Source: Mobilitalea sp.
Lineage (GTDB): Bacteria > Bacillota_A > Clostridia > Lachnospirales > Lachnospiraceae
Direction: 5' to 3'
Length of the DNA: 32,898 nucleotides
NCBI GenBank assembly: GCA_029974875.1
Contig: JARKQP010000057.1
Span: forward strand, 1-32,898
Shown here piece after piece: positions 1,499-27,361 of the stretch; the first letter of the stretch is position 1; each line of letters opens with the position of its first letter. The notes below the pieces were generated by a model that saw only the letters and a list, made by a program, of their open reading frames with translations, was not told where the DNA came from and searched no databases. A program made the translations under genes and the position numbers.

Positions 1499-1512
1499 AA
1501 GGAGGAAAGAAT

Positions 1513-1920
1513 TTGAGGGGATATATTTTGGTAAGTCATGGGGATTATGCGAAGGAACTTAAAAATTCTCTAAAGATGATTGTAGGTGATGTTTCTAATG
1601 TTTTTGAGGCGTGTCTTCAACCAGAGGAAGGACTTGAACAATTTAAGGAAAAGCTTGTAGCATTAAAAGGTGATATGGAAAAATATGATGAAGTGATTGT
1701 TTTTGCCGATCTTATGGGAGGAACGCCATGTAATGCAGCAGCTTCAGTTTATTTGGAGGAGAATCATGTAACAATAATTGGAGGCATGAATTTTCCAATG
1801 TTGTTAACAGCGTTATTGTCTGAAGAACTGTCAGTTGAAAATTTGATTTCTGTTGGAAAAGATGGAGTTGTCAATGTCAAGGCCAAGATGAATGCTATGA
1901 AATTTATTGATGAGGAATAG
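1513..1920 (+). CDS. PTS mannose-family EIIA component
   Basis: Cytoplasmic EIIA of 135 aa that takes phosphate from HPr and passes it to EIIB. His9 in the N-terminal LVSHG motif is the predicted phosphorylation site, and the FADLMGGTPCNAA segment (about residues 65-77) is typical of the family. It starts with TTG preceded by AAGGAGG at the end of the sulfatase gene; no better ATG exists near the conserved N-terminus. It is the first of four consecutive EII genes, ending 11 bases before EIIB. Confidence 0.93.
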   Translation: MRGYILVSHGDYAKELKNSLKMIVGDVSNVFEACLQPEEGLEQFKEKLVALKGDMEKYDEVIVFADLMGGTPCNAAASVYLEENHVTIIGGMNFPMLLTALLSEELSVENLISVGKDGVVNVKAKMNAMKFIDEE

Positions 1921-1931
1921 GAGGAAATAAA

Positions 1932-2411
1932 ATGGAAATCAAAAATGTAAGAATTGATGCAAGGGGAATCCATGGGCAGGTGGCTACATCATGGACCCGC
2001 CATTTAGGTATTAACAGAATTATGGTTATTGATGATAGCATCATAAAAAATGATATGCAAAAATTAGCGTTAAAAATGGCATGCCCGGAAGAAGTCAAAT
2101 TATCCATTTTTTCTTGTGAAAAAGCGGTGGAAAGACTAAATGATCCAGAAGCTTATGTTGGTGAAATGCTCATGATTATTCTAATTAATGTAGATACTTT
2201 AGCGAGGCTAAAGGCACTTAACTACCATTTCAAAGAAGTTAATATAGGAAATCTTCCCTCAAGGCCTAATACGGAAGCGGTCAGAAAAACAGTTTACATT
2301 ACCGAAGAGGAAAAGAAGATTATATTCGATGTCGAAAAAACAGGTACCCATTTCATTGCACAGATGGTACCAAGGGACAGTCCTGTTGATTTTATTTCTT
2401 TGCTGAAATAG
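1932..2411 (+). CDS. PTS mannose/fructose/sorbose-family EIIB component
   Basis: Cytoplasmic EIIB of 159 aa, which phosphorylates the sugar as it is carried through EIIC-EIID. The motif DARGIHGQVATSW places the phospho-histidine at His14. The length matches the family. An AGGAGG site lies 7 bases before the ATG. It sits between EIIA and EIIC in the same operon, so the four subunits should form one transporter. Specificity within the mannose superfamily cannot be assigned from sequence alone. Confidence 0.93.
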   Translation: MEIKNVRIDARGIHGQVATSWTRHLGINRIMVIDDSIIKNDMQKLALKMACPEEVKLSIFSCEKAVERLNDPEAYVGEMLMIILINVDTLARLKALNYHFKEVNIGNLPSRPNTEAVRKTVYITEEEKKIIFDVEKTGTHFIAQMVPRDSPVDFISLLK

Positions 2412-2457
2412 AAGCCGAGAATGTAAATAAATTTTATGAATTGAAAGGAGAAGGTAT

Positions 2458-3258
2458 ATGGAATTATGGCAAGCAGTACTTATTGGATTATTTGCTTACT
2501 TGGGGCGTAATCAGGTACCATGGTTATTTGGAACAACGGGTGGATGGTACGGTATCGGAAGACCTTTGGTAGCAGGGGCTATCATTGGTCTGATCCTGGG
2601 AGATGTAAAAACTGGAGTATTATGTGGTGTAGCAGTACAGGCAATTTTTATCGGACAGATTACACCAGGAGGGGCAGTTCCTTCTGATCTTAACCTGGCG
2701 GCATATATTGGTATTCCTCTGGCAATGGTTTCAGGAGGAACACCTGAAACGGCGGTGGCATTGGCAGTTCCGCTTGGTGCATTGGGAGTGGGGTTACATA
2801 ATTTTACAATGACAACTCAGTCTGCATTTGCTCACAGAGCGGATAAGTTTGCCGCAAATGGGAACGCAAGAGGGATTCGCATGGCAAATATTACAGGAAC
2901 ATCCATTTCTTTTGTAGAACGTTTCTTTATTGTAACCTTAACTTGTTATTTTGGGGCTTCTTTTGCAGAAAATATATTAAATTCATTGCCGGCAGTTGTT
3001 TTGAGCTTTCTTGCAGTCGGAGGAAAAATGCTTCCTGCGCTTGGGTTTGCAATATTATTAAATCAAATTACAAGCGAAAAATGGATGATTGCCCTTTTTA
3101 TATTAGGATGGACACTTACAAGCTCATTAACAATTACAACAACGACACTCGTATTCATTGCAGTAGCTATAGCGCTGGTTTATGTTATGGCGAAATATAG
3201 CGGCAATAAGGCTCAAGCTTTAGCCGCATCTATGAAAGGAGATGAATATGATGAGTAA
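2458..3258 (+). CDS. PTS mannose-family EIIC membrane component
   Basis: Integral membrane EIIC of 266 aa with many hydrophobic segments and the glycine-rich family stretches around residues 20-75 (GGWYGIGRPL, LGDVKTG, GGAVPSDLN). With EIID it forms the sugar channel. The ribosome site AAAGGAGAAGG precedes the ATG. The 3' end overlaps the start region of EIID, indicating translational coupling. The mannose-family EII with an upstream sulfatase resembles glycosaminoglycan PTS loci of other Firmicutes. Confidence 0.92.
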   Translation: MELWQAVLIGLFAYLGRNQVPWLFGTTGGWYGIGRPLVAGAIIGLILGDVKTGVLCGVAVQAIFIGQITPGGAVPSDLNLAAYIGIPLAMVSGGTPETAVALAVPLGALGVGLHNFTMTTQSAFAHRADKFAANGNARGIRMANITGTSISFVERFFIVTLTCYFGASFAENILNSLPAVVLSFLAVGGKMLPALGFAILLNQITSEKWMIALFILGWTLTSSLTITTTTLVFIAVAIALVYVMAKYSGNKAQALAASMKGDEYDE

Positions 3259-4069
3259 TAAAAAGCTTACAAAAAAGGATGTGTCTAAGGCTTCATGGAG
3301 ATGGCTATTCTTTCATCAAAGCTCGCATAATTACGAGAGAATGATGGGAACCGGCTTCTGCCATAGTCTCTCGGGCTCACTAGAAAAGCTCTATGAAGAT
3401 GATAAGGAAGGTTTATCAGAAGCATTAACTCGCAACATGGCATTTTTCAATACGGAGCCACAGTTAGGCTCCATTATTCCGGGAGTAGCTTTGGCGCTGG
3501 AAGAATCCTACGCTAATGACAAGGAAAATTTTGATCCAGAAATAATACCGAGTACAAAGAATGCTCTTATGGGGCCTTTAGCAGGTATTGGCGATTCCAT
3601 CCTAGTAGGAACACTTAACCCAATTCTTCTCAGTATAGGAATTGGACTATCGAAAGATGGTTCACCACTTGGGGCTATCTTTTTCATGATTGTATGGGTA
3701 GCCTTAGTTGTTGCTTTGAAATATTCGTTATTCATCAAGGGATATCAGTTGGGTTTGGATACCATTAAGATTTTAATGAACAACGAACTTAAGATGAAGA
3801 TCACGACAGCTTTAACAATGATTGGCCTGATTGTTATCGGTGGAGTTGCTTCTACAACTGTAAAAGCGCCAATCATAGTGCAATTTACATCCGGGGATAT
3901 GGCTATAACAATACAGAGTATTTTTGACAAAATCACACCCAATTTACCCGCATTACTTATTACCCTTGCATCTTACTATCTTGTTGCAAAAAAAGGATGG
4001 AACAGTAATAAATTACTCATTGGTATCTTAGGTTTTGCGTTCATCATGGTATTGTTCAAAATCATGTAG
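3248..4069 (+). CDS. PTS mannose-family EIID membrane component
   Basis: EIID subunit of about 273 aa, unique to the mannose PTS family, pairing with EIIC in the membrane. Family landmarks are the N-terminal SWRWLFFHQSSHNYERM segment, MAFFNTEP at about residues 65-72 and MGPLAGIGDSI near residue 107; the C-terminal half is strongly hydrophobic. Three ATGs lie at 3242, 3248 and 3251. The AAAGGAG at 3235-3241 fits the second or third better, so 3248 is chosen; 3242 is possible. The start lies inside the EIIC gene. A strong terminator follows, so EIID is the last gene of the operon. Confidence 0.92.
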   Translation: MMSNKKLTKKDVSKASWRWLFFHQSSHNYERMMGTGFCHSLSGSLEKLYEDDKEGLSEALTRNMAFFNTEPQLGSIIPGVALALEESYANDKENFDPEIIPSTKNALMGPLAGIGDSILVGTLNPILLSIGIGLSKDGSPLGAIFFMIVWVALVVALKYSLFIKGYQLGLDTIKILMNNELKMKITTALTMIGLIVIGGVASTTVKAPIIVQFTSGDMAITIQSIFDKITPNLPALLITLASYYLVAKKGWNSNKLLIGILGFAFIMVLFKIM

Positions 4070-4268: not shown

Positions 4269-4327
4269 TTAAATGAATAATGAACAGATGCAATGTGCCT
4301 ATTCTTTATGGAATAGGCATTAATATA

Positions 4328-4535
4328 CAGAATGTTTTTGTGGCCATGCTCCGTTTAGTGAGTGTGGATGAACAAGGGAATTGGGTGAGAATCCCAGACG
4401 GTACCGCCGCTGTATACGCTGAGTGCATGCTCGTTGATGAAAATCAGTCAGTGGGGAAACCTGAGAAGGCAGAGTATGGATGCAGAAGCAATAAGCTTCG
4501 AACGCGTGAGTCAGAAGACCTACAAGAATGGAGCT
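4328..4535 (+). promoter_or_regulatory. Cobalamin (AdoCbl) riboswitch
   Basis: The conserved core is present in order: GGGAA at 4376, GGTGAGAATCCC, then GACGGTACCGCCGCTGT (about 4397-4413), and the B12-box-like GAGTCAGAAGACCTAC at 4508-4523. This is the Rfam cobalamin riboswitch family. It lies between a strong promoter and cbiM, with a terminator hairpin 50 bases downstream, so it should shut off cobalt uptake when cobalamin is plentiful. The outer boundaries are approximate. A long open frame across this stretch is not a gene. Confidence 0.93.
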
Positions 4536-4581
4536 TGACTTAAATCTAAGAATTTAGGTCGGCCAGTGTGCACAGAAAAAC

Positions 4582-4617
4582 GGCTGTGGCAATATTTTAT
4601 TGCCCCAGCTATTTTTT
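4582..4617 (+). terminator. Riboswitch expression-platform terminator
   Basis: Stem 4582-4593 with 4599-4610 (one mismatch and one G-T pair), loop of five bases, then ATTTTTTAT. It lies just downstream of the B12 box and is the likely OFF structure. Confidence 0.7.
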
Positions 4618-4728
4618 ATGCCATTTTACAGGCCCGTCCGGTAACCGGAAAATTATTTGAAGTGGTGGGGGAGGTACTTTAGGTTCAATATGCCAAGAGC
4701 ATATGGAATAAAGAATGTTAAAGAACAA

Positions 4729-4834
4729 TAGGAGGGACATCCTCCTAACAAAAAAATGTATTAGGGGGGAATCCCCCTAACAAAAAAACGTATTAGGAGG
4801 GAAATCCTCCTAATAAAAAAACATAATAGGAGGA
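4729..4834 (+). repeat. Three tandem Shine-Dalgarno-bearing hairpins before cbiM
   Basis: The unit TAGGAGG-loop-CCTCCTA plus an A-rich linker recurs with starts at 4729, 4762 and 4794 (32-33-base period). A fourth half copy at 4827 is the actual cbiM ribosome site. Stems are 7, 8 and 9 bp. In the second unit the A of one arm and the T of the other are both changed (TTAGGGGG with CCCCCTAA), which preserves pairing. The third unit's CCTCCTA arm could also pair with the cbiM SD. See findings. Confidence 0.85.
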
Positions 4835-4841
4835 GTGGGAA

Positions 4842-5600
4842 ATGTTTAAGTGGACTAAAAAGGAAAAAAGAATCATGACGTTTTCAGTAATGATCGCCGC
4901 ATTACTCGCAACGTCGCAAACTGTCTATGCAATGCATATTATGGAAGGCTATTTGTCGGCCGCCTATTGCATCGCCTGGGGAGCAGTCAGTATTCCTTTC
5001 CTGGTAGCCGGGGTTATCAGTATACGCCATACGGTGCAGAAGAAACGGAGGGCATTAATTTTATTGGCAATGGCAGGTGCCTACATCTTTGTATTATCGT
5101 CCCTTAAGATACCGTCGGTTACAGGGAGCTGCAGCCATATGACAGGTACCGGGCTGTCGGCAATTCTTTTCGGACCTATGGCTACCAGCGTGCTGGGTAT
5201 TATTGTATTACTGTTCCAGGCAATTTTGCTCGCACATGGCGGTCTTACAACGCTGGGTGCCAATACCTTCAGTATGGCAATAGCCGGGCCGATTTTTTCC
5301 TTCCTGCTTTATAAGGCAGGCATTAAATTCAAGCTGAACCGTAAAGTGAATGTATTTATCGCTGTTGCCCTCGGGGATTTGTTTACATATTGTGTGACCA
5401 GCATGCAGCTGGCCATGGCTTATCCAAGTGAATCCGGCGGTGTTGCAGCAAGTGCATTAAAGTTCCTGGCTGTATTTGCACCGACCCAGGTACCGTTAGC
5501 TGTTATCGAGGGTATCCTGACAGTTATCATCGTTATGGGTATGGAAAGCTTTGCAGCACCTGAATTAAAAGAGGTAGGCTTTATAAAGGAGGGCAACTAA
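4842..5600 (+). CDS. cbiM: Cobalt ECF transporter substrate-specificity component CbiM
   Basis: Membrane S-component of 252 aa that binds Co2+ for corrinoid synthesis. A signal-like N-terminus (about residues 1-30, ending TVYA) precedes MHIMEGYL. Cleavage after Ala30 would expose Met-His, the N-terminal metal ligands known in the CbiM/NikM family. Several hydrophobic helices follow, including the SCSHMTGTGL segment near residue 100 that supplies another conserved histidine. SD AGGAGG lies 8 bases before the ATG. It is the first gene of cbiMNQO downstream of the cobalamin riboswitch, which supports cobalt rather than nickel as substrate. Confidence 0.95.
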   Translation: MFKWTKKEKRIMTFSVMIAALLATSQTVYAMHIMEGYLSAAYCIAWGAVSIPFLVAGVISIRHTVQKKRRALILLAMAGAYIFVLSSLKIPSVTGSCSHMTGTGLSAILFGPMATSVLGIIVLLFQAILLAHGGLTTLGANTFSMAIAGPIFSFLLYKAGIKFKLNRKVNVFIAVALGDLFTYCVTSMQLAMAYPSESGGVAASALKFLAVFAPTQVPLAVIEGILTVIIVMGMESFAAPELKEVGFIKEGN

Positions 5601-5601
5601 T

Positions 5602-5919
5602 ATGTCAAAGGACAAGAAAATAGTAATTGGTTTATTAATCATTGTATTGCTTATGGTGGTTGTTCCTCTGTTTGCTTTAAAGGGAGCTGAATTTGGAGGA
5701 AGTGACGATGCCGGCAGCCAGGTGGTTGCAGAGATAGCCGGAGATGATTACGAGCCCTGGTTTACCCCAATTTTTGAATCAGCCCTTGGCGGGGAGATTC
5801 CGGGAGAAATCGAAAGCTTGCTTTTCTGCGTGCAGACAGGAATCGGAGTTGGAATTATCGCATATGCCTTTGGATATCTGGTAGCCCGCAAAAAATATTC
5901 CCTGAAGGAAGAGAAATAA
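5602..5919 (+). CDS. cbiN: Cobalt transport auxiliary protein CbiN
   Basis: Small protein of 105 aa with two membrane helices (about residues 7-26 and 78-95) and an extracytoplasmic loop containing YEPWFTPIFE, the family hallmark. CbiN helps load cobalt into CbiM. It starts one base after the cbiM stop, so the genes are coupled. Its 3' end runs into a purine-rich tandem repeat. Confidence 0.93.
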   Translation: MSKDKKIVIGLLIIVLLMVVVPLFALKGAEFGGSDDAGSQVVAEIAGDDYEPWFTPIFESALGGEIPGEIESLLFCVQTGIGVGIIAYAFGYLVARKKYSLKEEK

Positions 5920-5931
5920 AGAAGAAAAACA

Positions 5932-5997
5932 AAAGAAGTGAAGCAAGGAAGAGAAGTAAAGAAGTGAAGTGAGGAAGAGAAGCAAAGAAGAGAGAGT
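5932..5997 (+). repeat. 26-bp purine-only tandem repeat between cbiN and cbiQ
   Basis: Two full units (5932-5957 and 5958-5983, consensus AAAGAAGTGAAG then GGAAGAGAAG) and a partial third unit (5984-5997). The sequence resembles the last codons of cbiN (GAAGGAAGAGAAATAAAG), so the array may have grown from the cbiN 3' end. The strand is almost pure purine. Confidence 0.75.
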
Positions 5998-6073
5998 AAA
6001 AAGCAAACAAGAAAGAACAGAGCACCCGGTTTCTGTGATGGGCAGGTTACCGGGGGCTCTTTGGGAGCGGTAT

Positions 6074-6979
6074 ATGATAATAACAGCAATATTAACAATG
6101 CTCGTGATCTGGTGCCTGTTTTATGGAGCAGTTCCCGGCGCAGCCCTGGTTTGTCTTTGCCTGGTTATGGGAGGCTTTTTGGCTGTGGTGGGCCGTCATA
6201 AGCATGAAGGGTTTTTGGTAATAGATATCATAGCGCAGCGTTCACAGTTAAATAAGATAAATTCGCCACTGAAATTTTGGACAGTGCTGATACTCCTGTT
6301 TTTATGTGTTGCATCCAGATCTGTGGTGGTCGGCTTGGTTTTAATGGCAGTGATGCTTTTTTTGACTGTAGCTGTCGGAGGGTTGGAATTGCACGACTAT
6401 CTTTCCTTGCTTTCCCTGCCCGTATCCTTTGTTCTCATCAGTGCCCTGGCACTGTTGGTTGATTATGGGAGTTCACCTTTTGGGGTCATCAACCTGCCGG
6501 TATCCCAGGGCTATCTTGTCGTCAGCCAGGCAGCACAGCTGCGGACGGCCCTGGTCCTGTCAAAGGCATTGGGAGCATTGAGCTGCTTATATTTACTCAG
6601 CTTATCAACCCCCATGCCGGAAATCATCTCCGTCTTAAGAAAAGCGCATGTACCGGACATTGTTATTGAGCTGATGTATTTAATATACCGTTATACCTTT
6701 GTACTGTTTGAAATGTACCGTTCCATGAAGGACGCAGCAAAGAGCCGGCTTGGGTTCGTCAATTTCTCCACCAGTGTAAAGACAACGGGAAAGATATACA
6801 CGAATCTGCTGGCAAGAAGCTATCAGAAGTCCATGAATAATTTTGATGCCATGGAAAGCCGCTGCTATATAGGGGAGATACGGTTTTTGGAGAATAAGAA
6901 AGAGCTTTCACGGCTGCATGCCATAGTAGCTGCTTTGTTAGTTGTCATTATTTCTGGATTGACCATTACATTGCATTAA
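6074..6979 (+). CDS. cbiQ: Cobalt ECF transporter T component CbiQ, with extra N-terminal membrane segment
   Basis: Membrane coupling protein linking CbiM/N to the ATPase. The recognisable CbiQ domain begins near IDIIAQRSQLNKINSP and includes the C-terminal coupling helix region with AAKSRLGF. Upstream in the same frame lies a hydrophobic segment of about 40 residues that I would not expect in a canonical CbiQ. The frame is open back to a GTG at 5969 (336 aa), but that start lies inside the purine repeat. ATG 6074 has GGGAG six bases upstream and keeps the hydrophobic extension (301 aa), so it is chosen. A GTG at 6185 or 6188 behind GGGAGG would give a family-length protein. The true start is undecided. 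Confidence 0.88.
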   Translation: MIITAILTMLVIWCLFYGAVPGAALVCLCLVMGGFLAVVGRHKHEGFLVIDIIAQRSQLNKINSPLKFWTVLILLFLCVASRSVVVGLVLMAVMLFLTVAVGGLELHDYLSLLSLPVSFVLISALALLVDYGSSPFGVINLPVSQGYLVVSQAAQLRTALVLSKALGALSCLYLLSLSTPMPEIISVLRKAHVPDIVIELMYLIYRYTFVLFEMYRSMKDAAKSRLGFVNFSTSVKTTGKIYTNLLARSYQKSMNNFDAMESRCYIGEIRFLENKKELSRLHAIVAALLVVIISGLTITLH

Positions 6980-7037
6980 TAACCGTTGCTAAATAACTAT
7001 GTATTTCTGGCCTGATTTTACTGATGCCACGGTTATT
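6978..7037 (+). other. Intercistronic inverted repeat between cbiQ and cbiO
   Basis: Perfect 9-bp arms (AATAACCGT at 6978-6986 and ACGGTTATT at 7029-7037) enclose 42 bases and include the cbiQ stop codon. No T-tract follows. It may stabilise or process the mRNA between the two genes. Confidence 0.4.
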
Positions 7038-7073
7038 TGGTAAACAATGTACCAGATGGGAGGAAGATAGAGC

Positions 7074-7874
7074 TTGGAAGAAATCCTGCGTTTTGAAGGA
7101 ATTAATTTTAGCTATGAGGAAGACCGGGTTGCCTTAAAAAATATATCTGTTTCCTTATACAAAGCCCAGAAGGTGGCGGTTCTTGGTAATAATGGAGCCG
7201 GAAAAAGTACCTTCTTTTTATGCTGCAACGGGGTCGTAAAGCCGCAAAAAGGCCGGATGTTTTTAAGGGATAAGGAGATAGGCGCCACCAGGAAGGAAAG
7301 TGTTTACCTGCGCCAAACCGTCGGAATCGTATTCCAGGATCCGGACAGCCAGATTATTGCGGGAACCGTAGAGGCTGAAATCAGCTTTGGCCCCATGAAT
7401 CTAAAATTACCTGAAGCCGTGGTACGAAGCCAGGTGGAGGATGCGATTGAGAAAATGCGCCTGGAAAGCATGCGCACGCGGGCACCCCACTATTTATCGG
7501 GAGGGGAGAAAAAACGTGTCAGTATTGCGGATGTCCTTGCAATGAATCCCCAGCTGCTCCTTTTTGATGAGCCGGGAGCCAGCCTGGATCCGGAAAATAC
7601 GCTTCTGCTGGAAAGAAACCTGGAGATGCTGAGCGAAAAGGGCCTGGGGCTGGTCATTGCGACCCATGACGTTGATTTTGCCTGGCGCTGGGCGGACAGG
7701 GTTCTGGTATTCCATGCCGGTGAGCTGGTGGCAGACGCTGACCCGGAGGCCGTGTTTTCGGATGAAGAGCTCCTAAGGAGGTGTGGATTAGTACAGCTTA
7801 CCCTGTTCCAGGTGGGTAAGCTATATAATATCAATCCTCTCCCCAGGGCTATTTCGGATCTGAAAGGAAGGTAG
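7074..7874 (+). CDS. cbiO: Cobalt ECF transporter ATPase CbiO
   Basis: Cytoplasmic ABC ATPase of 266 aa that powers CbiMNQ. Walker A is GNNGAGKST (residues 38-46), the Q-loop is VFQDPDSQI, the signature is LSGGEKKR, Walker B is LLLFDEPGASLD, and the switch histidine is in ATHD. It starts with TTG behind GGGAGG. The 94-base gap from cbiQ holds an inverted repeat. It is the last gene of the operon; no clear forward T-tract terminator was found after it. Confidence 0.94.
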   Translation: MEEILRFEGINFSYEEDRVALKNISVSLYKAQKVAVLGNNGAGKSTFFLCCNGVVKPQKGRMFLRDKEIGATRKESVYLRQTVGIVFQDPDSQIIAGTVEAEISFGPMNLKLPEAVVRSQVEDAIEKMRLESMRTRAPHYLSGGEKKRVSIADVLAMNPQLLLFDEPGASLDPENTLLLERNLEMLSEKGLGLVIATHDVDFAWRWADRVLVFHAGELVADADPEAVFSDEELLRRCGLVQLTLFQVGKLYNINPLPRAISDLKGR

Positions 7875-8166: not shown

Positions 8167-10467
8167 CTATATGAAGTGTAATGGCTTCGGATATCCATAA
8201 TAATTGAATAATGTAACCATCTGCTTCTGGCCAATATCTAAAGCTGCTTGGATCGATAATCCCTGGGTGAGGATCAGGCGTAATACATTACAAAGGATTG
8301 TCTCAATCTTATTCTGCGGAATTACCAAAGCCTTGCTGCGGTAGGGGCCGTTCCGCTTTCTGGCATACTCAAAGCTTTTTTCGGTTATCTCCATCCAAGG
8401 GTACAATTTTAAAAGTTCATGGCTGTGATAAGGGGCAATCACCGGTGATTGACCATCTAATATCGTCATATAATAGCTGGTATCATGCTTGCATAGCCAA
8501 TTAAAATATAAATATGCCATTTCTGTTTTCGTGGAAAATGGATTTAACCCAAAATTCCAACCGATACTTACAGGAGTTTTTCCTGGTAAAGGTTCATAAC
8601 CAACCCGTCCAATAATCTTTTTGTGGATACTTTCGCTGATCTGTGCAGCATATTCCGTATAAGTAATCAGCATAGCAGTTTTTCCATGGCAGAAATCGGA
8701 TACTGTCTGCTGGATTGAAACCTCAAAAGGGCTTTGCCCAGTATATTTTAAAGTCCGTAATATACTGTGGAATGCTTTCGCGTTTTCAGGGGAATTTAAG
8801 CAGGCGCGATTATACTTATCCCATATCTTCCCTCCATAAGACCACAATCTAATTAATATTTCAGGAGCCAGCTCCTCATCAATGATACCGGCAAAGGAGG
8901 TACCATACTCTGTGGGAGATTTGAGGTTATAGCTTCTGGTGAAAAATTCAGCGGTGCCATTAAATTCAGTCCATGTTTTTGGGGGACGGAGGGATATTTT
9001 ATATTTATTCTTAAAGGTCTTAATAATATCCCTGTTTTCAAATAAATCTTTACGGTAAAACATAATCTGTGAACCACCGATTATGGGAACACCATAGAAT
9101 TTATCTTCGCATCTGCAATTATCCATATTTTCTTTAAACAAAAGATCTTTGTTAAAATCATTGCTGTCCACAAACTCTGATATATCACTGACGAAAGAGT
9201 TCTGGACCATATATTCAAGCCATGGTACGTCATACATATAGATATCATAGGCATCCTTGCTAGAGATCATATCTTGTATCGTTTTCAGTACTTTGTTCTG
9301 GGGAACAAAATCAAAAGAAATAGGAATTCCGGTTCTTCTTGTAAAATTACTTGATAAAAGCATGGTTGAATGGGAGGTGGCTAAATCCACCATTAAAACA
9401 CGCAGCCCGGAGGGATTCACTTGAACATTATCCTTTGGGGGCTTCAGGGCATCTACCATGGGGACATCTAACGGATAATTAATAATATCATCGGAAAAAG
9501 TGATGGTTTCCTCTTCAAATAAAAGCGGGGATTTGATATTACGCAGCAACAAATTAGACGCTGCAGTACCAAGTGTAAAGGCTGTCCGGGAGCTGTGGAC
9601 TACACCTGGGATTTTTGCTGTGGTGTTCCAGCACTCTTCACTGAAGGTAATTAATTGTACGTTCTCCGGAACCTTTAATCCCTTTATGTGGAATGCCTCT
9701 AATACGCCCTCTGCAATATTTTGGGATGTAGTTATGACCGCTTCTATATTTTTAGTGTCAATGGAAGTCATAGTATACTTAAATGCACCTTCCTTTGACA
9801 TATTTGTATTTCCGACCATATTATCATCATATGCCAAATTCTGGTTTGTAAAAGCATCCTTATAACCGGATATACATTCACGCTCAGAAGAAAAATGCTC
9901 TGAACCTGTACTAAGCGCTATCTTTCGGTAGCCTTTTCTTAAAAGCTCATAGGTAATATAATATGTAGTCTGGTAATTATCAAAGGAAATAAAGCTTACA
10001 AAAATATCATCAGGGCAGCGCTCAATAAAGACAGTGGGTATATTGTAATTTTTAATTCTGTTTTTAAAGAAATCAGTATTATTCGGCTGACAGGTAATAA
10101 TGATTAAGCCTGATACATTCTGGCTGATAAAATCATCAATCCTTTCACATTCAATATCAGGAGAGTTATTGGAAAAAGCGACGCTTACCGTATAACTTTT
10201 GTCCTGTAAAAAAGAAGATATCCCCTTAAATATTTCTGCATGGTACAGATTGTCTATATCCGTTAATACGACACCAATTCTATTGGAGGAAGAGGATTTA
10301 AGATTCCGGGCGGAAGCATTTGGAATATATTTTAATTTTTCTATGGAGTCCATAACCCTCATCTTGGTTTCCGGCTTTACTGTTTTGCTTCCGCTAAGGC
10401 AGCAGGATACAGTTGCAATGGAAACACCGGCATCTTTTGCAACATCTTTTAAAGTAGCCATATTCAT
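8167..10467 (-). CDS. LacI-family regulator fused to a family-1 extracellular-type solute-binding domain
   Basis: A 766-aa protein. Residues 4-60 form a LacI DNA-binding head (TLKDVAKDAGVSIATVS helix-turn-helix, then the hinge IPNASARNL). Residues about 62-340 are a LacI/periplasmic type I effector domain. After a short proline-containing linker, residues about 354-766 form a complete bacterial family-1 solute-binding domain (GVPIIGGSQIMFYRKDLF, PPKTWTEF, RLWSYGGKIW, WNFGLNPFS are typical). There is no signal peptide or lipobox, so the second domain must sense a ligand in the cytoplasm. It is divergent from rhaM and the methyltransferase-ABC operon and shares a palindromic site with them. The first ATG is used, although its SD is weak; a second ATG lies two codons on. 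About twice the usual LacI length. Confidence 0.9.
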   Translation of the reverse strand: MNMATLKDVAKDAGVSIATVSCCLSGSKTVKPETKMRVMDSIEKLKYIPNASARNLKSSSSNRIGVVLTDIDNLYHAEIFKGISSFLQDKSYTVSVAFSNNSPDIECERIDDFISQNVSGLIIITCQPNNTDFFKNRIKNYNIPTVFIERCPDDIFVSFISFDNYQTTYYITYELLRKGYRKIALSTGSEHFSSERECISGYKDAFTNQNLAYDDNMVGNTNMSKEGAFKYTMTSIDTKNIEAVITTSQNIAEGVLEAFHIKGLKVPENVQLITFSEECWNTTAKIPGVVHSSRTAFTLGTAASNLLLRNIKSPLLFEEETITFSDDIINYPLDVPMVDALKPPKDNVQVNPSGLRVLMVDLATSHSTMLLSSNFTRRTGIPISFDFVPQNKVLKTIQDMISSKDAYDIYMYDVPWLEYMVQNSFVSDISEFVDSNDFNKDLLFKENMDNCRCEDKFYGVPIIGGSQIMFYRKDLFENRDIIKTFKNKYKISLRPPKTWTEFNGTAEFFTRSYNLKSPTEYGTSFAGIIDEELAPEILIRLWSYGGKIWDKYNRACLNSPENAKAFHSILRTLKYTGQSPFEVSIQQTVSDFCHGKTAMLITYTEYAAQISESIHKKIIGRVGYEPLPGKTPVSIGWNFGLNPFSTKTEMAYLYFNWLCKHDTSYYMTILDGQSPVIAPYHSHELLKLYPWMEITEKSFEYARKRNGPYRSKALVIPQNKIETILCNVLRLILTQGLSIQAALDIGQKQMVTLFNYYGYPKPLHFI

Positions 10468-10507
10468 TCTCGCTTTCTCATCTGTTTCAGTAAATCATAT
10501 TAGGATA

Positions 10508-10536
10508 AGATTACCATACAAAATTTCCTAAGTCAA
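10508..10536 (-). promoter_or_regulatory. Promoter of the LacI-type fusion regulator
   Basis: On the minus strand TTGACT (10536-10531), a 17-base spacer and TAATCT (10513-10508), preceded by an extended TGG. The upstream edge of the -35 is 4 bp from the palindromic operator at 10541-10554, so autoregulation is likely. Confidence 0.5.
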
Positions 10537-10540
10537 ATTA

Positions 10541-10554
10541 TCTAAACGTTTAGA
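10541..10554. promoter_or_regulatory. LacI-type operator, copy 1
   Basis: Perfect 14-bp palindrome TCTAAACGTTTAGA with the central CG typical of LacI-family sites. It is centred 49.5 bases upstream of the first base of the rhaM -10 box and abuts the regulator's own -35. An identical copy lies at 10959-10972. Confidence 0.85.
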
Positions 10555-10574
10555 AAATTATTTTAGAAATAACC

Positions 10575-10602
10575 GTGAAATTAGCCTCAAATAATATATA
10601 AT
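10575..10602 (+). promoter_or_regulatory. Probable rhaM promoter
   Basis: GTGAAA at 10575-10580, a 16-base spacer, and a perfect TATAAT at 10597-10602 in a very AT-rich stretch. Other AT-rich hexamers nearby make the exact -10 less certain. Confidence 0.5.
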
Positions 10603-10632
10603 ATATAAAAAATTGCCGGAGGGATAGTTTAT

Positions 10633-10956
10633 ATGAAAAGATATGGACAAATAATTAAAGTGAAACCAGAATACTTAGAAAAGTACAAAGCGTTACATGC
10701 GAATCCATGGCCCCAGATTAATGAAAAAATCAAAGAATGCAAGATACAAAATTACTCTATTTACTATAGGGATGGCTTCCTGTTCAGCTACTTTGAATAT
10801 GTCGGGGATAATTTTGAAGAGGATATGAAGAGGATGTCAGAGGATGAATGGACACAGAGCTGGTGGAAGGAAACCGACCCCTGCCAAGAGCCGGTTGCTT
10901 CTGCAAAAGAGGGGGAATGGTGGGCTGGTATGGAAGAGGTCTATCACCTGGATTGA
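10633..10956 (+). CDS. rhaM: L-rhamnose mutarotase family protein
   Basis: A 107-aa protein of the RhaM/YiiL family, which interconverts alpha and beta anomers of L-rhamnose and related 6-deoxy sugars. Family features include the N-terminal RYGQIIKVKPE, IYYRDGFLFSYFEY in the middle, and the C-terminal WWKETDPCQEP. SD GGAGGG lies 9 bases before the ATG. It is flanked on both sides by identical palindromic operators, so it can be expressed apart from the following operon while sharing its regulator. Its presence is the best clue that the linked ABC importer carries a rhamnose-like sugar; no rhamnose isomerase, kinase or aldolase is in this window. Confidence 0.88.
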   Translation: MKRYGQIIKVKPEYLEKYKALHANPWPQINEKIKECKIQNYSIYYRDGFLFSYFEYVGDNFEEDMKRMSEDEWTQSWWKETDPCQEPVASAKEGEWWAGMEEVYHLD

Positions 10957-10958
10957 AA

Positions 10959-10972
10959 TCTAAACGTTTAGA
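10959..10972. promoter_or_regulatory. LacI-type operator, copy 2
   Basis: Exact copy of TCTAAACGTTTAGA, starting two bases after the rhaM stop codon. It is centred 49.5 bases upstream of the first base of the next -10 box, the same offset as copy 1. The two centres are 418 bp apart. Confidence 0.85.
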
Positions 10973-10992
10973 ATTATATTTTAACATCTATA

Positions 10993-11020
10993 TTGAATCG
11001 GAGGCTTTAGTTGATATAAT
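10993..11020 (+). promoter_or_regulatory. Promoter of the methyltransferase-ABC operon
   Basis: TTGAAT at 10993-10998, 16-base spacer, and TATAAT at 11015-11020 preceded by TGA (extended -10). It lies between rhaM and the URO-D gene and should serve the four following genes. Confidence 0.65.
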
Positions 11021-11081
11021 AAGAATTGCAAAGTGACCGGTCCTTAAATAGCAAATAATACATGGAAACAAGGAGGAAGCT

Positions 11082-12323
11082 ATGACTTCTAGAGAGAGAA
11101 TTTTGGCGGCAATTAATCATAAACAGCCTGATTATGTGCCACTTGACTTGGGAGCGACACCGAGTTCAGGAATTTCCGCCATTGCGTACAATAATTTAAA
11201 GAAGCATTTAAATATGGAAGGCGGACATACACGTATTTACGACGTGGTCCAGCAGGTGGTACAGCCGGAGGATGAAATATTAGATAGGTTTGGAGTAGAT
11301 GTTATAGATATTGGGAGAGTATTCAATCGGAAGGATGAGGATTGGTATGATGTTACCTTAGCAGATGGCTCGACCGGACAGTATCCAATATGGTTTAAGC
11401 CGGAAAAGCTTAGTAATGGAGCTTATGTTGTAATTGATAAGGAAGGGACACAGATAGCAAAGATGCCGGTTGGAGCAACCTTCTTTGACCAGACCTATTT
11501 CCCATATCTGGAGGATTATCCAGAGGATTATTCTGATTTGGACCATCAGATGGGTAAAGTGCTATGGAGTGCAATGGTACATAGCCCCTGGGATCATGCA
11601 GGAGAAAAAGATTTTTATAAGGTGCTGAGGGAAAGAACCATTGAACTTAGAAACTCAACAGATAAAGCATTAATGATAACCTGCGGATGTAACCTGTTTG
11701 AATGGGGGACTTTCTTAAGAAGAATGGATAATTTCTTAATGGATACCTATGCCGATGAAGAAAATGTTGAGCTATTAATAGGGCAGCTTATGGAAAGACA
11801 TCTGGCGACGCTGGAAAAGGTTTGTGATGCGGTTGGAGATGTGGTTGATGTCTTAAGATTTGGCGATGATCTTGGTATGGATACCGGAATGTTCATGTCC
11901 CGTGAAAAATACCAAAAGCTATTTAAGCCGTATCATACACAATTAAATGCTTATGTACATAAGCACAGTAAGATGAAGACATTTTTACACTCCTGCGGTT
12001 CTATCTATCCGATTATTGGTGACTTAATCGATGCCGGATATGATATACTAAATCCGGTTCAGACAACTGCTTATCAAATGGATCCGGTGATTCTTAAAAA
12101 GGAGTTTGGAAAGGACATTACATTCTGGGGCGGAGGATGCAATACGAGAACGGTCCTTAATAGGGCAACACCGGATGAGGTATATGAATATTCACGCCGC
12201 ATGATTGATATTTTTTCAGATAATGGCGGCTTTGTATTTAACACAGAGCATAATATTATGCCGGATGTTCCGCCGGAAAATATTATTGCAATGTATCGTG
12301 CAGTTGCGGATGCCAGAAAATAA
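11082..12323 (+). CDS. URO-D superfamily methyltransferase (MtaA/MtbA or O-demethylase-like)
   Basis: A 413-aa protein of the uroporphyrinogen decarboxylase fold. Heme decarboxylation is unlikely: the setting is sugar uptake, and the C-terminal half has FLHSCGSI (His303, Cys305) and GGGCNT (Cys353), matching the H-x-C...C zinc site of corrinoid:CoM-type and O-demethylation methyltransferases. The N-terminus MTSRERILAAINHKQPDYVPLD is typical of this branch. It starts at ATG behind AAGGAGG and is followed by the three ABC importer genes. No corrinoid carrier protein or reductive activase is in the window, so a methyl-transfer role is inferred. The substrate may be an O-methylated sugar brought in by the neighbouring importer. 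Confidence 0.82.
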   Translation: MTSRERILAAINHKQPDYVPLDLGATPSSGISAIAYNNLKKHLNMEGGHTRIYDVVQQVVQPEDEILDRFGVDVIDIGRVFNRKDEDWYDVTLADGSTGQYPIWFKPEKLSNGAYVVIDKEGTQIAKMPVGATFFDQTYFPYLEDYPEDYSDLDHQMGKVLWSAMVHSPWDHAGEKDFYKVLRERTIELRNSTDKALMITCGCNLFEWGTFLRRMDNFLMDTYADEENVELLIGQLMERHLATLEKVCDAVGDVVDVLRFGDDLGMDTGMFMSREKYQKLFKPYHTQLNAYVHKHSKMKTFLHSCGSIYPIIGDLIDAGYDILNPVQTTAYQMDPVILKKEFGKDITFWGGGCNTRTVLNRATPDEVYEYSRRMIDIFSDNGGFVFNTEHNIMPDVPPENIIAMYRAVADARK

Positions 12324-12352
12324 ACAGTTTGACAAATAGTAAGGAGACGGAT

Positions 12353-13366
12353 ATGAAAGCCGGAAATATATTAAGAGAAAATAATTGGAAGAAAATATTT
12401 GGAAGAGGAGAGGTAACGGTTATCCTTGCAGTCCTGACATTAGGAATTATATTTACTGTTTTTTCGGAGAGCTTCTTAACCTCCTATAATATGTTTAATA
12501 TGGGAAGAACAGCTGCAATCTACATATTCATAGCAATCGGACAGGCGCTGGTTGTTATTGTCGGCGGCATGAATTTATCTCTGGGACAAATTGGAGGAAT
12601 GACCGTAGTCGGAGCCGGTTACTGTATGGAGATATTGCATATGCCTCCATTAGTAGCCGTTATCGTAGGATTATTGGTCGGCGTTTTAGCAGGTTTATTA
12701 AATGGCTTTATTATAACGGCCTTAAAGCTGAATTCTTTTGTTGTAACCTTAGCAACCTCATTTATATTTACCGGCCTGATTAACGGAGTATCCCAGGGGT
12801 ATCCATATAATGATATTCCGGAAGGGTTTACCTTTATAGGCAGGGAGGGCTTTTTGGGAATCCCCTTTTTATTATGGTTAGCAGCATTTGCCCTAATCCT
12901 GTTAGGTTATTTCTTTAAGTATACAGTAACAGGAAGAAGGATCCTGGCTACAGGCGGTAACATTGAAGCAGCTAAAATGTCAGGTGTTAATACAAATAAA
13001 ATGATCATCTTAGCTAATATTGGTTCGGGTGTGTTTGCGGCAATGGCAGGACTACTTTGGATTTCAAGGACTGGCTCGGCACAGCCCTCCACCGGAGTTG
13101 ATTGGATGGTTATTTCATTTGCGGTAGCAGTAATTGGAGGGACGGTACTAAAAGGCGGTGTGTTTAATCCCATCGGTGTATTCTTTGCAGGGTTCTTAAT
13201 TGTAATGGTGAAAAATGGGCTGGTTATGTTAAATGCAAATATCTATTTTGAACAAGCATATTTAGGTCTGATTTTACTATTAGCTGTTTCGTTGGATAGC
13301 ATTAAAAATATTATTAATGCAAGGAAATTAAAAGAAAGTTTAAAAAGGGAAACTATAAAACAATAA
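12353..13366 (+). CDS. Ribose/rhamnose-type ABC sugar transporter permease
   Basis: RbsC-family inner-membrane permease of about 337 aa with multiple hydrophobic helices and the family segments IGQALVVIVGGMNLSLG (near residue 65) and FAVAVIGGTVLKGG near the C-terminus, where the ATPase docks. The frame opens at a TTG at 12329, but ATG 12353 has AAGGAG six bases upstream and is chosen. It is the second gene of the operon, with a binding lipoprotein and ATPase following. Substrate is unproven; a deoxyhexose is suggested by the linked mutarotase. Confidence 0.92.
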   Translation: MKAGNILRENNWKKIFGRGEVTVILAVLTLGIIFTVFSESFLTSYNMFNMGRTAAIYIFIAIGQALVVIVGGMNLSLGQIGGMTVVGAGYCMEILHMPPLVAVIVGLLVGVLAGLLNGFIITALKLNSFVVTLATSFIFTGLINGVSQGYPYNDIPEGFTFIGREGFLGIPFLLWLAAFALILLGYFFKYTVTGRRILATGGNIEAAKMSGVNTNKMIILANIGSGVFAAMAGLLWISRTGSAQPSTGVDWMVISFAVAVIGGTVLKGGVFNPIGVFFAGFLIVMVKNGLVMLNANIYFEQAYLGLILLLAVSLDSIKNIINARKLKESLKRETIKQ

Positions 13367-13388
13367 AATATTAAGGGAGGAAATAGTT

Positions 13389-14471
13389 ATGAAAAGAAAG
13401 ACCATTTCAGCTTTATTATGTGCAGCAATGATATTTGGATTAGTAGGCTGCAGTACGCCTTCTGCTCCGACAAAGGGTAACGGGAGTGAAAAAATATCAG
13501 GGGCTGCAGACGGATCAGCCACGGAAGGCACAGAATCAAATTTAAAAATGGCCTGGTATGCACCGGCGCCGCATCCTTATTTTGAAGAGGTGCAAAAGGG
13601 CGTTGAACAATTTAAATCCGAGCAGAATGTAGACGTTATTATCCAAATCGGGCCTGATTGGACGCAAGCCAGTGAAAATGAAAAGGTGGAAGCCTTGATT
13701 GCACAGGGGGTAAATGCATTATCTATCTATCCATGTGATGCATCCGGTGCAAATGGATTATATCAGGAAATTTCTGAAAAAATGGGTGTAGACGTAATTA
13801 ACTTCGGTACGGATACTGCAAAGCCCACGACTGCAGCTTTTGCAGTGGCAACTGATGTAAAGCAGGCAGCCTTTGATGCAACGGAAGCTGTAATAAAAAT
13901 GATGGGCGAAAAAGGTAATATTTTAAATGTTCTTGAGGTTTTAGAGGATCCGAATACTGCACTCAGAAAAACAGGCGTGGAGGAAGCGGTCGCAAAGTAC
14001 CCGGATGTCAAAATAATTCAAGAAATTGCAGGAATCAAAACACAAGAAGAAGCGGTAAACAAAATAGAAAGCGCATTATCGGCCAATATAGGTAAAATAG
14101 ATGGAATTGTATGTACAGGCTTTGTTACAAGTGTCGGTATGACCCAAACCTTATCTGATTATTATGAAAAGCAGGGAAGCGATAAGCATATTTTCACCGT
14201 AGCAATCGATACGGATCCCGGTGTTTTAAAGGGAATTGAGAACGGCATCGTAGATGCGACAGTTGCACAGAATCCGGTTGGCCACGGATATATATCCTGT
14301 ATGCTATTGAAATATCTGAGTGAAGGCTATAAGGTAAGGGAAGGCGAATATTTTGTTAATGCAGGTAATACTTTAGTGACAAAAGATAATATGGACTCTT
14401 ATGAAAAGGATTTACAGGCTGTTACAAAGGATATATTAGACTCGTTAACAACAAAATATTTGACAAAATAA
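13389..14471 (+). CDS. Sugar ABC transporter substrate-binding lipoprotein (type I periplasmic fold)
   Basis: A 360-aa secreted lipoprotein. The signal peptide ends in a lipobox LVGC with lipidated Cys21. A low-complexity Ser/Gly/Thr linker (to about residue 50) leads to the RbsB-like domain beginning KMAWYAPAPHPYF. It captures the sugar outside the cell for the adjacent permease. Aromatic residues just after the domain start (W, Y, F) fit sugar stacking. SD GGGAGG precedes the ATG. The effector domain of the divergent LacI-type regulator has the same fold class but is not a close copy. Confidence 0.93.
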   Translation: MKRKTISALLCAAMIFGLVGCSTPSAPTKGNGSEKISGAADGSATEGTESNLKMAWYAPAPHPYFEEVQKGVEQFKSEQNVDVIIQIGPDWTQASENEKVEALIAQGVNALSIYPCDASGANGLYQEISEKMGVDVINFGTDTAKPTTAAFAVATDVKQAAFDATEAVIKMMGEKGNILNVLEVLEDPNTALRKTGVEEAVAKYPDVKIIQEIAGIKTQEEAVNKIESALSANIGKIDGIVCTGFVTSVGMTQTLSDYYEKQGSDKHIFTVAIDTDPGVLKGIENGIVDATVAQNPVGHGYISCMLLKYLSEGYKVREGEYFVNAGNTLVTKDNMDSYEKDLQAVTKDILDSLTTKYLTK

Positions 14472-14504
14472 TTTCTAGGGCGGGTTGATTATGGAGGTTA
14501 AGCA

Positions 14505-16007
14505 ATGTTAGCGTTAAAAAATATAAGTAAGATTTTCCCCGGTGTAAAGGCCTTAGATGACGTTTCCATTTCCTTTGCACCAGGTGAAATACATGCATTG
14601 ATGGGTGAAAATGGTGCAGGAAAATCCACATTAATGAAGATTATCACCGGAATCTACCAACCGGACATGGGACAGATATATTTAGATGGAAAACAAGTAG
14701 AAATGAAGAATTTCCGTGATGCGGTAGCCCATGATATTAATATGGTAAGCCAGGAAATCCAGGTTATCCCGGATGCTACTGTAGCAGAAAATATCGTATT
14801 AGACAGACTTGATAAATTTAAAAAAGGCCCTGTAGTTGACTGGAGTGCAATCAATGAAACAGCGGAGCAATATTTAGCTATGGTAGGCTTGGAAATTAAT
14901 CCTGCCGATAAAATAGAACGGTTAACAGCAGCACAAAAGCAATTAATCCAAATTGCGAAGGCATTATCCTCCAATGCAAAATACATCCTGCTAGATGAGC
15001 CCACATCTTCTTTAACTACCTTTGAAAGTAATAATTTAATTAAGATTGTAAGAAAGCTAAAAGAACGCAATGTTGCAGTAATCTTTGTCTCCCACAAAAT
15101 CGAGGAAGTGTTAGAGTTATGTGATAAAGTGTCCGTGCTCCGGGATGGTAAATATGTGGGCAGTAAGAGCTGCCAGGGAATTGGACGCCAGGATATTGTA
15201 AAGATGATGATTGGGCGTGAAGAAACCGATGAGTATTTAGGAACCCTGGACATAAGGGATGAAAAGGTCTTAGAGGTAAAGGATGTTACTGCTTATGGAC
15301 AATTTGACCATATCAGCTTCCATTTAAATAGAGGTGAAATCCTTGGTTTCTATGGTCTGGTAGGTTCGGGAAGGACGGAACTTGCCAGGTTGGTTATCGG
15401 TGCAGATAAGATGGACGAGGGTACGGTTTATGTAAATGGGACAAGGGCAAGGATTAAATCCCTCCAAGACTGTATTGAAAGATATGGGATTGGATATGTT
15501 ACGGAAAACCGGAAAGAGGAAGGCCTGATGTTAGACTTGGCGGTTTCCACTAATATCAGCATTACTATTTGGTCAAAAATCATTAATAAGCTCCGTAAAA
15601 TTTCTGTTAAAAAAGAAGTGGATTCGGTTAACTCCATGATAGAAAAGATGAAAATAAAGACACCGACAATAAAAACGAAGGTTGGAAATCTATCAGGCGG
15701 TAACCAGCAAAAAGTAAGTATCGGAAAATGGCTTGCGGCCAATTGTGATATTTTAATTATTGATGAGCCCAGTGTCGGTGTAGACGTAGGTGCCAAAAAG
15801 TATATCCACGATTTGATCTGGAGCTTGGCGAAGGATGAAGGAAAATCCATTATTGTAATTTCATCCGATATGCCGGAGCTTATAACATTATCCAGGCGAA
15901 TCATGGTATTTAAAGACCAGAAAATAACCGGTGAAATTACAGGACTTAATGAGCAGGAAAGAAGCTATGAAGAAGTGAGTGAGCATATTGGAAGGCTCAT
16001 GGCATAA
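14505..16007 (+). CDS. Sugar ABC transporter ATPase, two nucleotide-binding domains (RbsA type)
   Basis: A 500-aa tandem ABC ATPase that drives the importer. Domain 1 has Walker A GENGAGKST (34-42), the variant signature LTAAQKQ and Walker B ILLDEPTSSL. Domain 2 has the degenerate Walker A VGSGRTEL usual in RbsA proteins, the signature LSGGNQQK and IIDEPSVGVDVG. ATG follows GGAGG by about 8 bases. It is the last gene of the operon and is followed by a strong hairpin. Confidence 0.94.
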   Translation: MLALKNISKIFPGVKALDDVSISFAPGEIHALMGENGAGKSTLMKIITGIYQPDMGQIYLDGKQVEMKNFRDAVAHDINMVSQEIQVIPDATVAENIVLDRLDKFKKGPVVDWSAINETAEQYLAMVGLEINPADKIERLTAAQKQLIQIAKALSSNAKYILLDEPTSSLTTFESNNLIKIVRKLKERNVAVIFVSHKIEEVLELCDKVSVLRDGKYVGSKSCQGIGRQDIVKMMIGREETDEYLGTLDIRDEKVLEVKDVTAYGQFDHISFHLNRGEILGFYGLVGSGRTELARLVIGADKMDEGTVYVNGTRARIKSLQDCIERYGIGYVTENRKEEGLMLDLAVSTNISITIWSKIINKLRKISVKKEVDSVNSMIEKMKIKTPTIKTKVGNLSGGNQQKVSIGKWLAANCDILIIDEPSVGVDVGAKKYIHDLIWSLAKDEGKSIIVISSDMPELITLSRRIMVFKDQKITGEITGLNEQERSYEEVSEHIGRLMA

Positions 16008-26998: not shown

Positions 26999-27048
26999 AA
27001 TGAATCCTCCTTTAAGCATGTAGTTATATTCCATGATTGCCATGGATA

Positions 27049-27240: not shown

Positions 27241-27306
27241 AGCCTATGAAGGTGGAGGGCAATAAAAAAAGAGAGCTTTAATAAAAAGCTCTCCACCCTA
27301 TAAGCC
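27241..27306 (-). terminator. Terminator within the leader of the sodium-pump operon (candidate attenuator)
   Basis: On the minus strand GAGAGCTTT (27293-27285) pairs perfectly with AAAGCTCTC (27279-27271), followed by T7. It lies after a strong promoter and 70 bases before the gamma-subunit start. A second pairing, GGTGGAG (27297-27291) with CTCCACC (27257-27251) extended by a 7-bp helix (27306-27300 with 27247-27241), shares three bases with the terminator stem, so the two can compete. Confidence 0.7.
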
Positions 27307-27361
27307 AAAACTTGAAACAGTTATTCACTGCCAACCGGAAAAGTAAAACATATTTTTTTAT

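What the first reader, a model, noticed from the sequence alone, without database searches (positions are those of the whole stretch)
8167..16007. Candidate O-methyl-deoxysugar uptake and demethylation locus
Mutarotase of the RhaM family, a URO-D-fold methyltransferase with an H-x-C...C zinc site, and a complete RbsABC-type importer lie behind shared operators. An MtaA/MtbA-like methyltransferase inside a sugar import operon is odd. One reading is that the importer brings in an O-methylated rhamnose-like sugar (from plant or bacterial glycans) and the methyltransferase removes the methyl group to a corrinoid protein. A cobalt importer under a cobalamin riboswitch lies directly upstream, which is suggestive only. 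No corrinoid protein or activase is visible here, the main weakness.
Basis: partly seen in the sequence, partly recalled or inferred. Interest (0 to 1): 0.8.

Follow-up and report, generated by a model that had tools for sequence, protein, structure and literature searches.

The report
Bacterial O-methyl-fucose uptake and demethylation operon
An anaerobic bacterium carries a switchable set of genes that probably imports a methyl-capped, fucose-like sugar and pulls the methyl group off with a vitamin-B12-dependent enzyme, which would be an oxygen-free way to use methylated sugars.

Summary
The operon is real: a LacI/solute-binding-protein fusion regulator, a mutarotase, a URO-D-fold protein and a complete RbsABC-type importer, with two identical 14-bp palindromes that are the only such sites (up to 1 mismatch) in a near-identical 6.4-Mb genome. 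The corrinoid reading is supported. Carrier and activase genes exist in that genome. All 28 family genomes found with this URO-D class have the activase (205 of 369 others). In 6 of 32 orthologous loci, corrinoid-system genes lie alongside.

Three details change. The putative metal site is His-x-Cys plus His390, not Cys. The sugar is probably fucose-type, not rhamnose: the mutarotase matches solved L-fucose mutarotases (109 bits) and barely E. coli YiiL (28 bits); alpha-L-fucosidase or L-fucose isomerase genes sit in 5 of 32 loci, rhamnose isomerase in none. The cobalt importer recurs in only 1 of 32 loci, the same-species one.

Best reading: the URO-D protein is the substrate:corrinoid methyltransferase (MT1) of an anaerobic O-demethylase for an O-methyl-L-fucose-like sugar. 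Catalysis, metal and substrate are inferred; nothing was assayed. New variant of a known kind (UroD-superfamily methyltransferase systems for methoxy-aromatics and haloalkanes).

The parts
8167..10467 (-). Fusion regulator: LacI DNA-binding domain, LacI-type sugar-binding domain and a C-terminal extracellular-type solute-binding domain (766 aa)
   Evidence: Pfam LacI 5-50, Peripla_BP_1 63-277, SBP_bac_1 375-658; a relative lies in 20 of 32 orthologous loci
10541..10554 (.). Operator 1, TCTAAACGTTTAGA, in the divergent promoter region
10633..10956 (+). Mutarotase of PF05336, closest to solved L-fucose mutarotases
10959..10972 (.). Operator 2, identical copy between mutarotase and URO-D genes, 418 bp from operator 1
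11082..12323 (+). URO-D-fold protein, proposed O-methyl-sugar:corrinoid methyltransferase (MT1); putative metal site H303-x-C305 ... H390
12329..13366 (+). RbsC-type (CUT2) sugar permease
13389..14471 (+). RbsB-type sugar-binding protein (lipoprotein-like start)
14505..16007 (+). RbsA/AraG-type twin ATPase

Best explanation
The operon is a dedicated uptake and first-step module for an O-methylated 6-deoxyhexose, most likely an O-methyl-L-fucose. The LacI-SBP regulator represses from two identical operators until the sugar binds. The RbsABC importer brings the sugar in, the FucM-like mutarotase equilibrates its anomers, and the URO-D protein (MT1), with the ether oxygen activated by a zinc held by H303, C305 and H390, passes the methyl to the Co(I) of a corrinoid protein encoded elsewhere in the genome. 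A RACo-type activase keeps that corrinoid reduced. A second methyltransferase then takes the methyl: a methyl-THF enzyme in one relative (L104), or an MtaA-like His-Cys-Cys URO-D protein in others including the near-identical genome G001. The freed L-fucose enters the FucI pathway. Shown: genes, operators, predicted fold, conserved residues, co-occurrence and gene neighbourhoods. Inferred: repression, the reaction, the zinc, the substrate and the partner pairing.
For: (1) Fold: AlphaFold model mean pLDDT 96; best Foldseek PDB hit is 4ay7, the M. mazei methyltransferase named methylcobalamin:CoM methyltransferase. (2) H303 and C305 in 49 of 49, H390 in 48 of 48 aligned sequences with a residue there. 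(3) All 28 genomes with this class (E<=1e-30) among 397 family genomes have RACo against 205 of 369 others, Fisher p 2e-7; genomes with a PF05336 mutarotase but not this class are at background, 42 of 77. (4) In 32 orthologous loci, within the fetched flanks: corrinoid protein in 5, RACo in 4 (one only a 212-aa piece at a contig end), MtaA-like partner in 3, methyl-THF:corrinoid methyltransferase in 1. (5) Mutarotase within the flanks in 24 of 32, immediately adjacent in 16. (6) Fucose: mutarotase 108.9 bits to L-fucose mutarotase 7byu against 28.1 to YiiL; alpha-L-fucosidase in the same gene run in 4 of 32 loci and L-fucose isomerase nearby in 1; full-length FucI in 12 of 13 genomes with a >=60%-identical copy against 16 of 67.
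Confidence: 0.6

Rival explanations
1. Same mechanism, but the sugar is an O-methyl-rhamnose.
For: The mutarotase family is PF05336 'rhaM'; RhaA is enriched in carrier genomes; a RhaT-type transporter overlaps the gene in one Bacteroidales locus.
Against: The mutarotase scores 38.2 bits on the L-rhamnose mutarotase model against a cut-off of 99.6 and is far closer to solved L-fucose mutarotases. No RhaA homologue was found in the 32 loci, while GH29 was in 4 and FucI in 1. Rhamnosidases were tested only with one weak GH106-like reference (25.4 bits, below its Pfam cut-off), so their absence is not established. The RhaT locus also has FucI and GH95.
Confidence: 0.12
2. Same machinery, but the substrate is a methyl glycoside (anomeric O-methyl) of a deoxysugar; the enzyme frees one anomer and the mutarotase then equilibrates it.
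For: Would explain why a mutarotase is often adjacent (16 of 32 loci).
Against: Alpha-L-fucosidases in the gene run of 4 of 32 loci suggest that sugars are first released as free reducing sugars. Free methyl glycosides are rare in nature (recalled).
Confidence: 0.08
3. The URO-D-fold protein does something other than methyl transfer to a corrinoid, for example a lyase or decarboxylase step on the sugar.
For: The fold also matches UROD and MetE structures; a His at the H390 position is shared with UROD; 26 of 32 loci lack adjacent corrinoid-system genes.
Against: RACo in 28 of 28 carrier genomes; adjacency to corrinoid protein, RACo or methyl-THF methyltransferase in several genera including Treponema; fixed H-x-C.
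Confidence: 0.1
4. The importer carries a non-sugar methylated compound (for example a methylated polyol or an aromatic glycoside) and the mutarotase is incidental.
For: No catabolic enzyme in the window operon.
Against: PF05336 mutarotase in 13 of 13 genomes with a >=60%-identical copy against 82 of 384 others; CUT2 importer and LacI-type regulator; glycosidases in several loci.
Confidence: 0.1

Closest known systems
Anaerobic O-demethylases of the UroD superfamily (OdmB, VdmB, MtvB, MtoB) and the chloromethane system CdmB/CdmC/CdmA (PMC13222342, passages read)
   Same: UroD-fold MT1 working with a separate corrinoid protein, an activating enzyme and an MT2; corrinoid protein and methyl-THF methyltransferase lie beside the gene in relative L104
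   Different: Sits in a sugar-import operon with a mutarotase; proposed substrate is a sugar ether, not a methoxy-aromatic or haloalkane; carrier not in the window's operon; proposed His-Cys-His site. Not compared by sequence: their sequences were not to hand
Soluble coenzyme M methyltransferases MtaA/MtbA and bacterial Mlp proteins (PMC10418091, passages read)
   Same: Fold and first two ligands H-x-C
   Different: Third position His, not Cys; 42.7 bits against the MtaA/CmuA cut-off of 235.4
L-fucose mutarotase, PDB 7byu/7byw
   Same: Aligns with the window mutarotase over residues 2-107, 108.9 bits
   Different: Linked here to a methyltransferase and importer; FucM is described for non-phosphorylating fucose pathways (PMC11199699, passages read)
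Oxidative demethylation of 6-O-methyl-D-galactose from porphyran by a P450 (PMC10033563, start of abstract seen)
   Same: Removes a sugar O-methyl group before catabolism
   Different: Oxidative, releases formaldehyde; no corrinoid

Membership tests
UroD-superfamily corrinoid MT1 (O-demethylase type) | URO-D fold | tested here: met
   PF01208 74 bits; Foldseek top hit 4ay7, E 2.3e-13
UroD-superfamily corrinoid MT1 (O-demethylase type) | H-x-C metal motif with a non-Cys third position | tested here: met
   H303, C305, H390. Metal itself not tested; by PMC13222342 some family members lack zinc
UroD-superfamily corrinoid MT1 (O-demethylase type) | Corrinoid protein and reductive activase available | tested here: met
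   G001, near-identical genome: two stand-alone corrinoid proteins and one RACo; alongside in some relatives
UroD-superfamily corrinoid MT1 (O-demethylase type) | MT1, corrinoid protein and MT2 in one cluster | tested here: inconclusive
   Absent in the window; MT1, carrier and MT2 together in L104, single or several components in 5 further loci of 32
UroD-superfamily corrinoid MT1 (O-demethylase type) | Methyl transfer from an ether to Co(I) | not testable with these tools
   needs an assay
MtaA/MtbA CoM methyltransferase | Curated model score and His-Cys-Cys site | tested here: not met
   42.7 of 235.4 bits; His at the third position
Uroporphyrinogen decarboxylase HemE | Curated model score | tested here: not met
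   22.0 of 302.95 bits
L-rhamnose mutarotase RhaM (TIGR02625) | Curated model score | tested here: not met
   38.2 of 99.6 bits
L-fucose mutarotase FucM | Full-length similarity to the solved enzyme | tested here: met
   residues 2-107, 108.9 bits, E 1.6e-30 to 7byu; activity not tested
CUT2 (Rbs-type) sugar importer | Twin ATPase, BPD_transp_2 permease, Peripla_BP_4 binding protein | tested here: met

The most novel reading that the evidence does not exclude
Anaerobes of gut and digester have a whole class of corrinoid-dependent sugar O-demethylases: many UroD-fold MT1 enzymes, each placed in its own sugar-uptake or glycan-degradation locus (this one for O-methyl-L-fucose, a paralogue beside glucuronate genes perhaps for 4-O-methyl-glucuronate), sharing a few corrinoid carriers and one activase per cell. 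The near-identical genome G001 has 15 URO-D matches, 2 stand-alone carriers and 1 activase.
Probability: 0.45. Interest if true: 0.88.

Novelty: new variant of a known kind. Interest (0 to 1): 0.72.

Why it matters
Methyl ethers protect many plant, algal, bacterial and invertebrate glycans (recalled). How anaerobes, which cannot use P450s, remove them did not complete in the papers that my searches listed. A B12-dependent route would tie glycan use to cobamide supply and one-carbon flow in gut and digester communities, give a function to a URO-D clade whose members carry names such as 'uroporphyrinogen decarboxylase family protein' (7,986 proteins at E<=0.001 in a capped search, of which I saw the best 120, all at least 81% identical), and provide enzymes for trimming methylated sugars.

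Tried and rejected
Cobalt importer as part of the system: rejected; cbiM and cbiQ were found only in the same-species locus L033 among 32 orthologous loci, cbiO elsewhere only as 24-28%-identical ABC ATPases. Carbamate kinase and lyxose isomerase downstream: likewise only L033. A regulon beyond the operon: none at up to 1 mismatch in G001. PF00809 hits in G001 as MT2: one is dihydropteroate synthase (331.4 bits, cut-off 162.6), the other lies in a 908-aa frame that also carries PF02607 and is MetH-like; so no MtgA-type MT2 was found there, nor a CdhC-type acetyl-CoA synthase match (genome 97% complete). Corrinoid-protein search as a discriminating test: failed, because most genomes match, many through MetH. 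GH106 as a rhamnose control: the only reference is below its Pfam cut-off. RACo in L059: a 212-aa piece at a contig end with no Pfam or NCBIfam match, labelled by similarity only. PHROGs: no match. PDB single-sequence search for the URO-D protein: no match at E<=0.1. Paper searches for prior reports of anaerobic sugar O-demethylation: none seen in the listings, which were capped; the library is open-access papers only.
Full report
What is there. The window carries a divergent pair of transcription units. On the minus strand 8167-10467 is a 766-aa regulator with a LacI DNA-binding domain, a LacI-type sugar-binding domain and a C-terminal solute-binding domain. On the plus strand are a PF05336 mutarotase, a 413-aa URO-D-fold protein, and permease, binding protein and twin ATPase of an RbsABC-type importer. 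The palindrome TCTAAACGTTTAGA stands at 10541 and again at 10959, 418 bp apart. By shuffling, 0.17 such sites at up to 2 mismatches are expected in the window. G001, the nearest genome held, shares 74% of the window's sampled 31-letter words and has a 99%-identical URO-D gene, which I take as the same species. In all of G001 the only sites at up to 1 mismatch are these two; the reversed control pattern hits one place. A site at up to 2 mismatches lies within 1.5 kb of the URO-D gene in 20 of 32 orthologous loci, two sites in 10; in 20 base-shuffles of those regions 0 to 2 of 32 loci have one. Two more sites in these loci lie further off.

Is corrinoid machinery available? In G001 there are 15 URO-D matches, two stand-alone corrinoid proteins plus a third domain within a 908-aa frame, and one RACo activase. 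One corrinoid protein stands in a row with an MtaB-type methanol methyltransferase gene and the activase gene; the other is 1.7 kb from an MtaA-like URO-D gene on contig C75. Across 397 genomes of the family, 28 have this URO-D class at E<=1e-30 and all 28 have RACo, against 205 of 369 others (Fisher 2.3e-7). For the 13 with a copy of at least 60% identity it is 13 of 13 against 220 of 384 (p 0.001). As a control, mutarotase-bearing genomes without the class are at background, 42 of 77. A search with a G001 corrinoid protein does not discriminate: 27 of 28 carriers and 323 of 369 others match, many through MetH; carrier G029 has no match at that threshold. One search scored at most 4 candidates per genome, so the 28 may be an undercount. 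None of these tests is corrected for phylogeny or genome size.

Neighbourhoods. I compared 32 orthologous loci (59-99% identical): 27 of the 28 loci (L060, 35% identical, dropped) and 5 (L100, L102-L105). L033 is the same-species locus. Within the fetched flanks (up to 10 kb, some contigs shorter) a corrinoid protein occurs in 5 (L035, L040, L052, L059, L104); RACo in 4 (L035, L040, L052 and, as a 212-aa piece at a contig end without a family match, L059); an MtaA-like partner in 3 (L035, L038, L040); and a methyl-THF:corrinoid methyltransferase in 1 (L104, 335.5 bits, cut-off 259). Any of these occurs in 6 of 32; at an assumed chance of 0.02 per locus, set by hand, p is 4e-5. The mutarotase is in 24 of 32, adjacent in 16; the fusion-type regulator in 20; an Rbs-type ATPase in 19. 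L104 holds two URO-D genes, the methyl-THF methyltransferase and the corrinoid protein together, which is the MT1/carrier/MT2 set of known O-demethylase systems (PMC13222342, passages read). The Treponema locus L052 shows that the link is not confined to Lachnospiraceae. The loci are related to each other, so p-values are only indicative.

Which sugar? The window mutarotase aligns over its length with solved L-fucose mutarotases (7byu, 108.9 bits) and weakly with E. coli YiiL (28.1) and an L-rhamnose mutarotase (21.5). A paper on a novel L-fucose mutarotase of the non-phosphorylating pathway is in the reference list of PMC11199699 (passages read). Alpha-L-fucosidase genes lie in the same gene run in L041, L043 (scanned as L098, the same contig), L053 and L054; L056 has L-fucose isomerase, an MFS transporter, a RhaT-type transporter and a GH95 gene. 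L036 has a 103-residue partial match to that GH95 protein about 9 kb away. No RhaA homologue was found in the 32 loci; rhamnosidases were not properly tested, since my only GH106 reference scores below its Pfam cut-off and GH78 was not tried. Of 13 carrier genomes 12 have a full-length FucI (my criterion: frame 577-649 aa, E<1e-41) against 16 of 67 others (p 5e-6). By any PF02952 match it is 13 of 13 against 43 of 67. RhaA is in 9 of 13 against 16 of 67 (p 0.0025). The 67 were taken in handle order, URO-D-positive genomes left out. G001 has both a FucI and a RhaA gene, each beside an FGGY kinase. So both deoxysugar pathways are enriched, fucose more. 2-O-methyl-L-fucose, a residue of rhamnogalacturonan II and other glycans (recalled), is a natural candidate, but the methyl position is unknown.

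Where does the methyl go? G001 has no CdhC-type acetyl-CoA synthase match, and its two PF00809 matches are dihydropteroate synthase and a MetH-like frame. It has an MtaA-like URO-D protein near a corrinoid protein with His-Cys-Cys at the positions where the window protein has His-Cys-His. I propose that this is the acceptor-side enzyme in such genomes, while L104 uses methyl-THF. The acceptor in G001 is unknown.

Novelty. Nine literature searches in an open-access library listed no report of corrinoid-dependent sugar O-demethylation; the listings were capped and I read passages of three papers only. What they show are methoxy-aromatics, methylated amines, haloalkanes and an oxidative P450 route for a porphyran sugar. 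I file this as a new variant of a known kind.

Noticed in passing
window 8167-10467: LacI regulator fused to a complete extracellular-type solute-binding domain, giving two possible sugar sensors in one protein; a relative lies in 20 of 32 orthologous loci and another with the same domains beside a paralogous URO-D gene (L024)
   Followed up: partly
L024 (G001 C55:391000-410000): A URO-D paralogue (46% identical over 169 residues) with UxaC, UxuA and a short-chain dehydrogenase 5-8 kb away on the same strand, suggesting 4-O-methyl-glucuronate from xylan as substrate
   Followed up: partly
G001, 15 places: Many of the URO-D family genes lie, by eye, near sugar importers or glycosidase-like genes, with only two stand-alone corrinoid proteins and one activase
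   Followed up: partly
L028 (G001 C17:30000-49000): A second mutarotase (62% identical) with a second URO-D type and its own Rbs-type importer; the same URO-D type also occurs near the window-type gene in L037, L044, L058 and L104
   Followed up: partly
L021:6895-7926, L035:2327-3334, L038:9642-10664, L040:6015-7025: MtaA-like URO-D proteins with a His-Cys-Cys site near corrinoid or window-type genes in non-methanogens; methyl acceptor unknown
   Followed up: partly
L112 (G311 C10:54000-73990): A 34%-identical URO-D paralogue with a methyl-THF:corrinoid methyltransferase (319.8 bits) and two corrinoid proteins beside three genes that by eye look like a TRAP-type importer, so another substrate class
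   Followed up: partly
window 4321-7874: Cobalamin riboswitch and cobalt importer, not conserved beside this operon elsewhere
   Followed up: yes
window 27287-27336 and 25862-27043: Na+ riboswitch upstream of an oxaloacetate decarboxylase beta-subunit (sodium pump) gene
   Followed up: no
window 116-4069: Sulfatase gene followed by the four parts of a mannose-family PTS, perhaps uptake of a desulfated amino sugar or uronide
   Followed up: no
L022 (G001 C12:212000-230000): MtaB, corrinoid protein and RACo activase: a methanol methyltransferase set in a genome without a CdhC-type acetyl-CoA synthase match
   Followed up: partly
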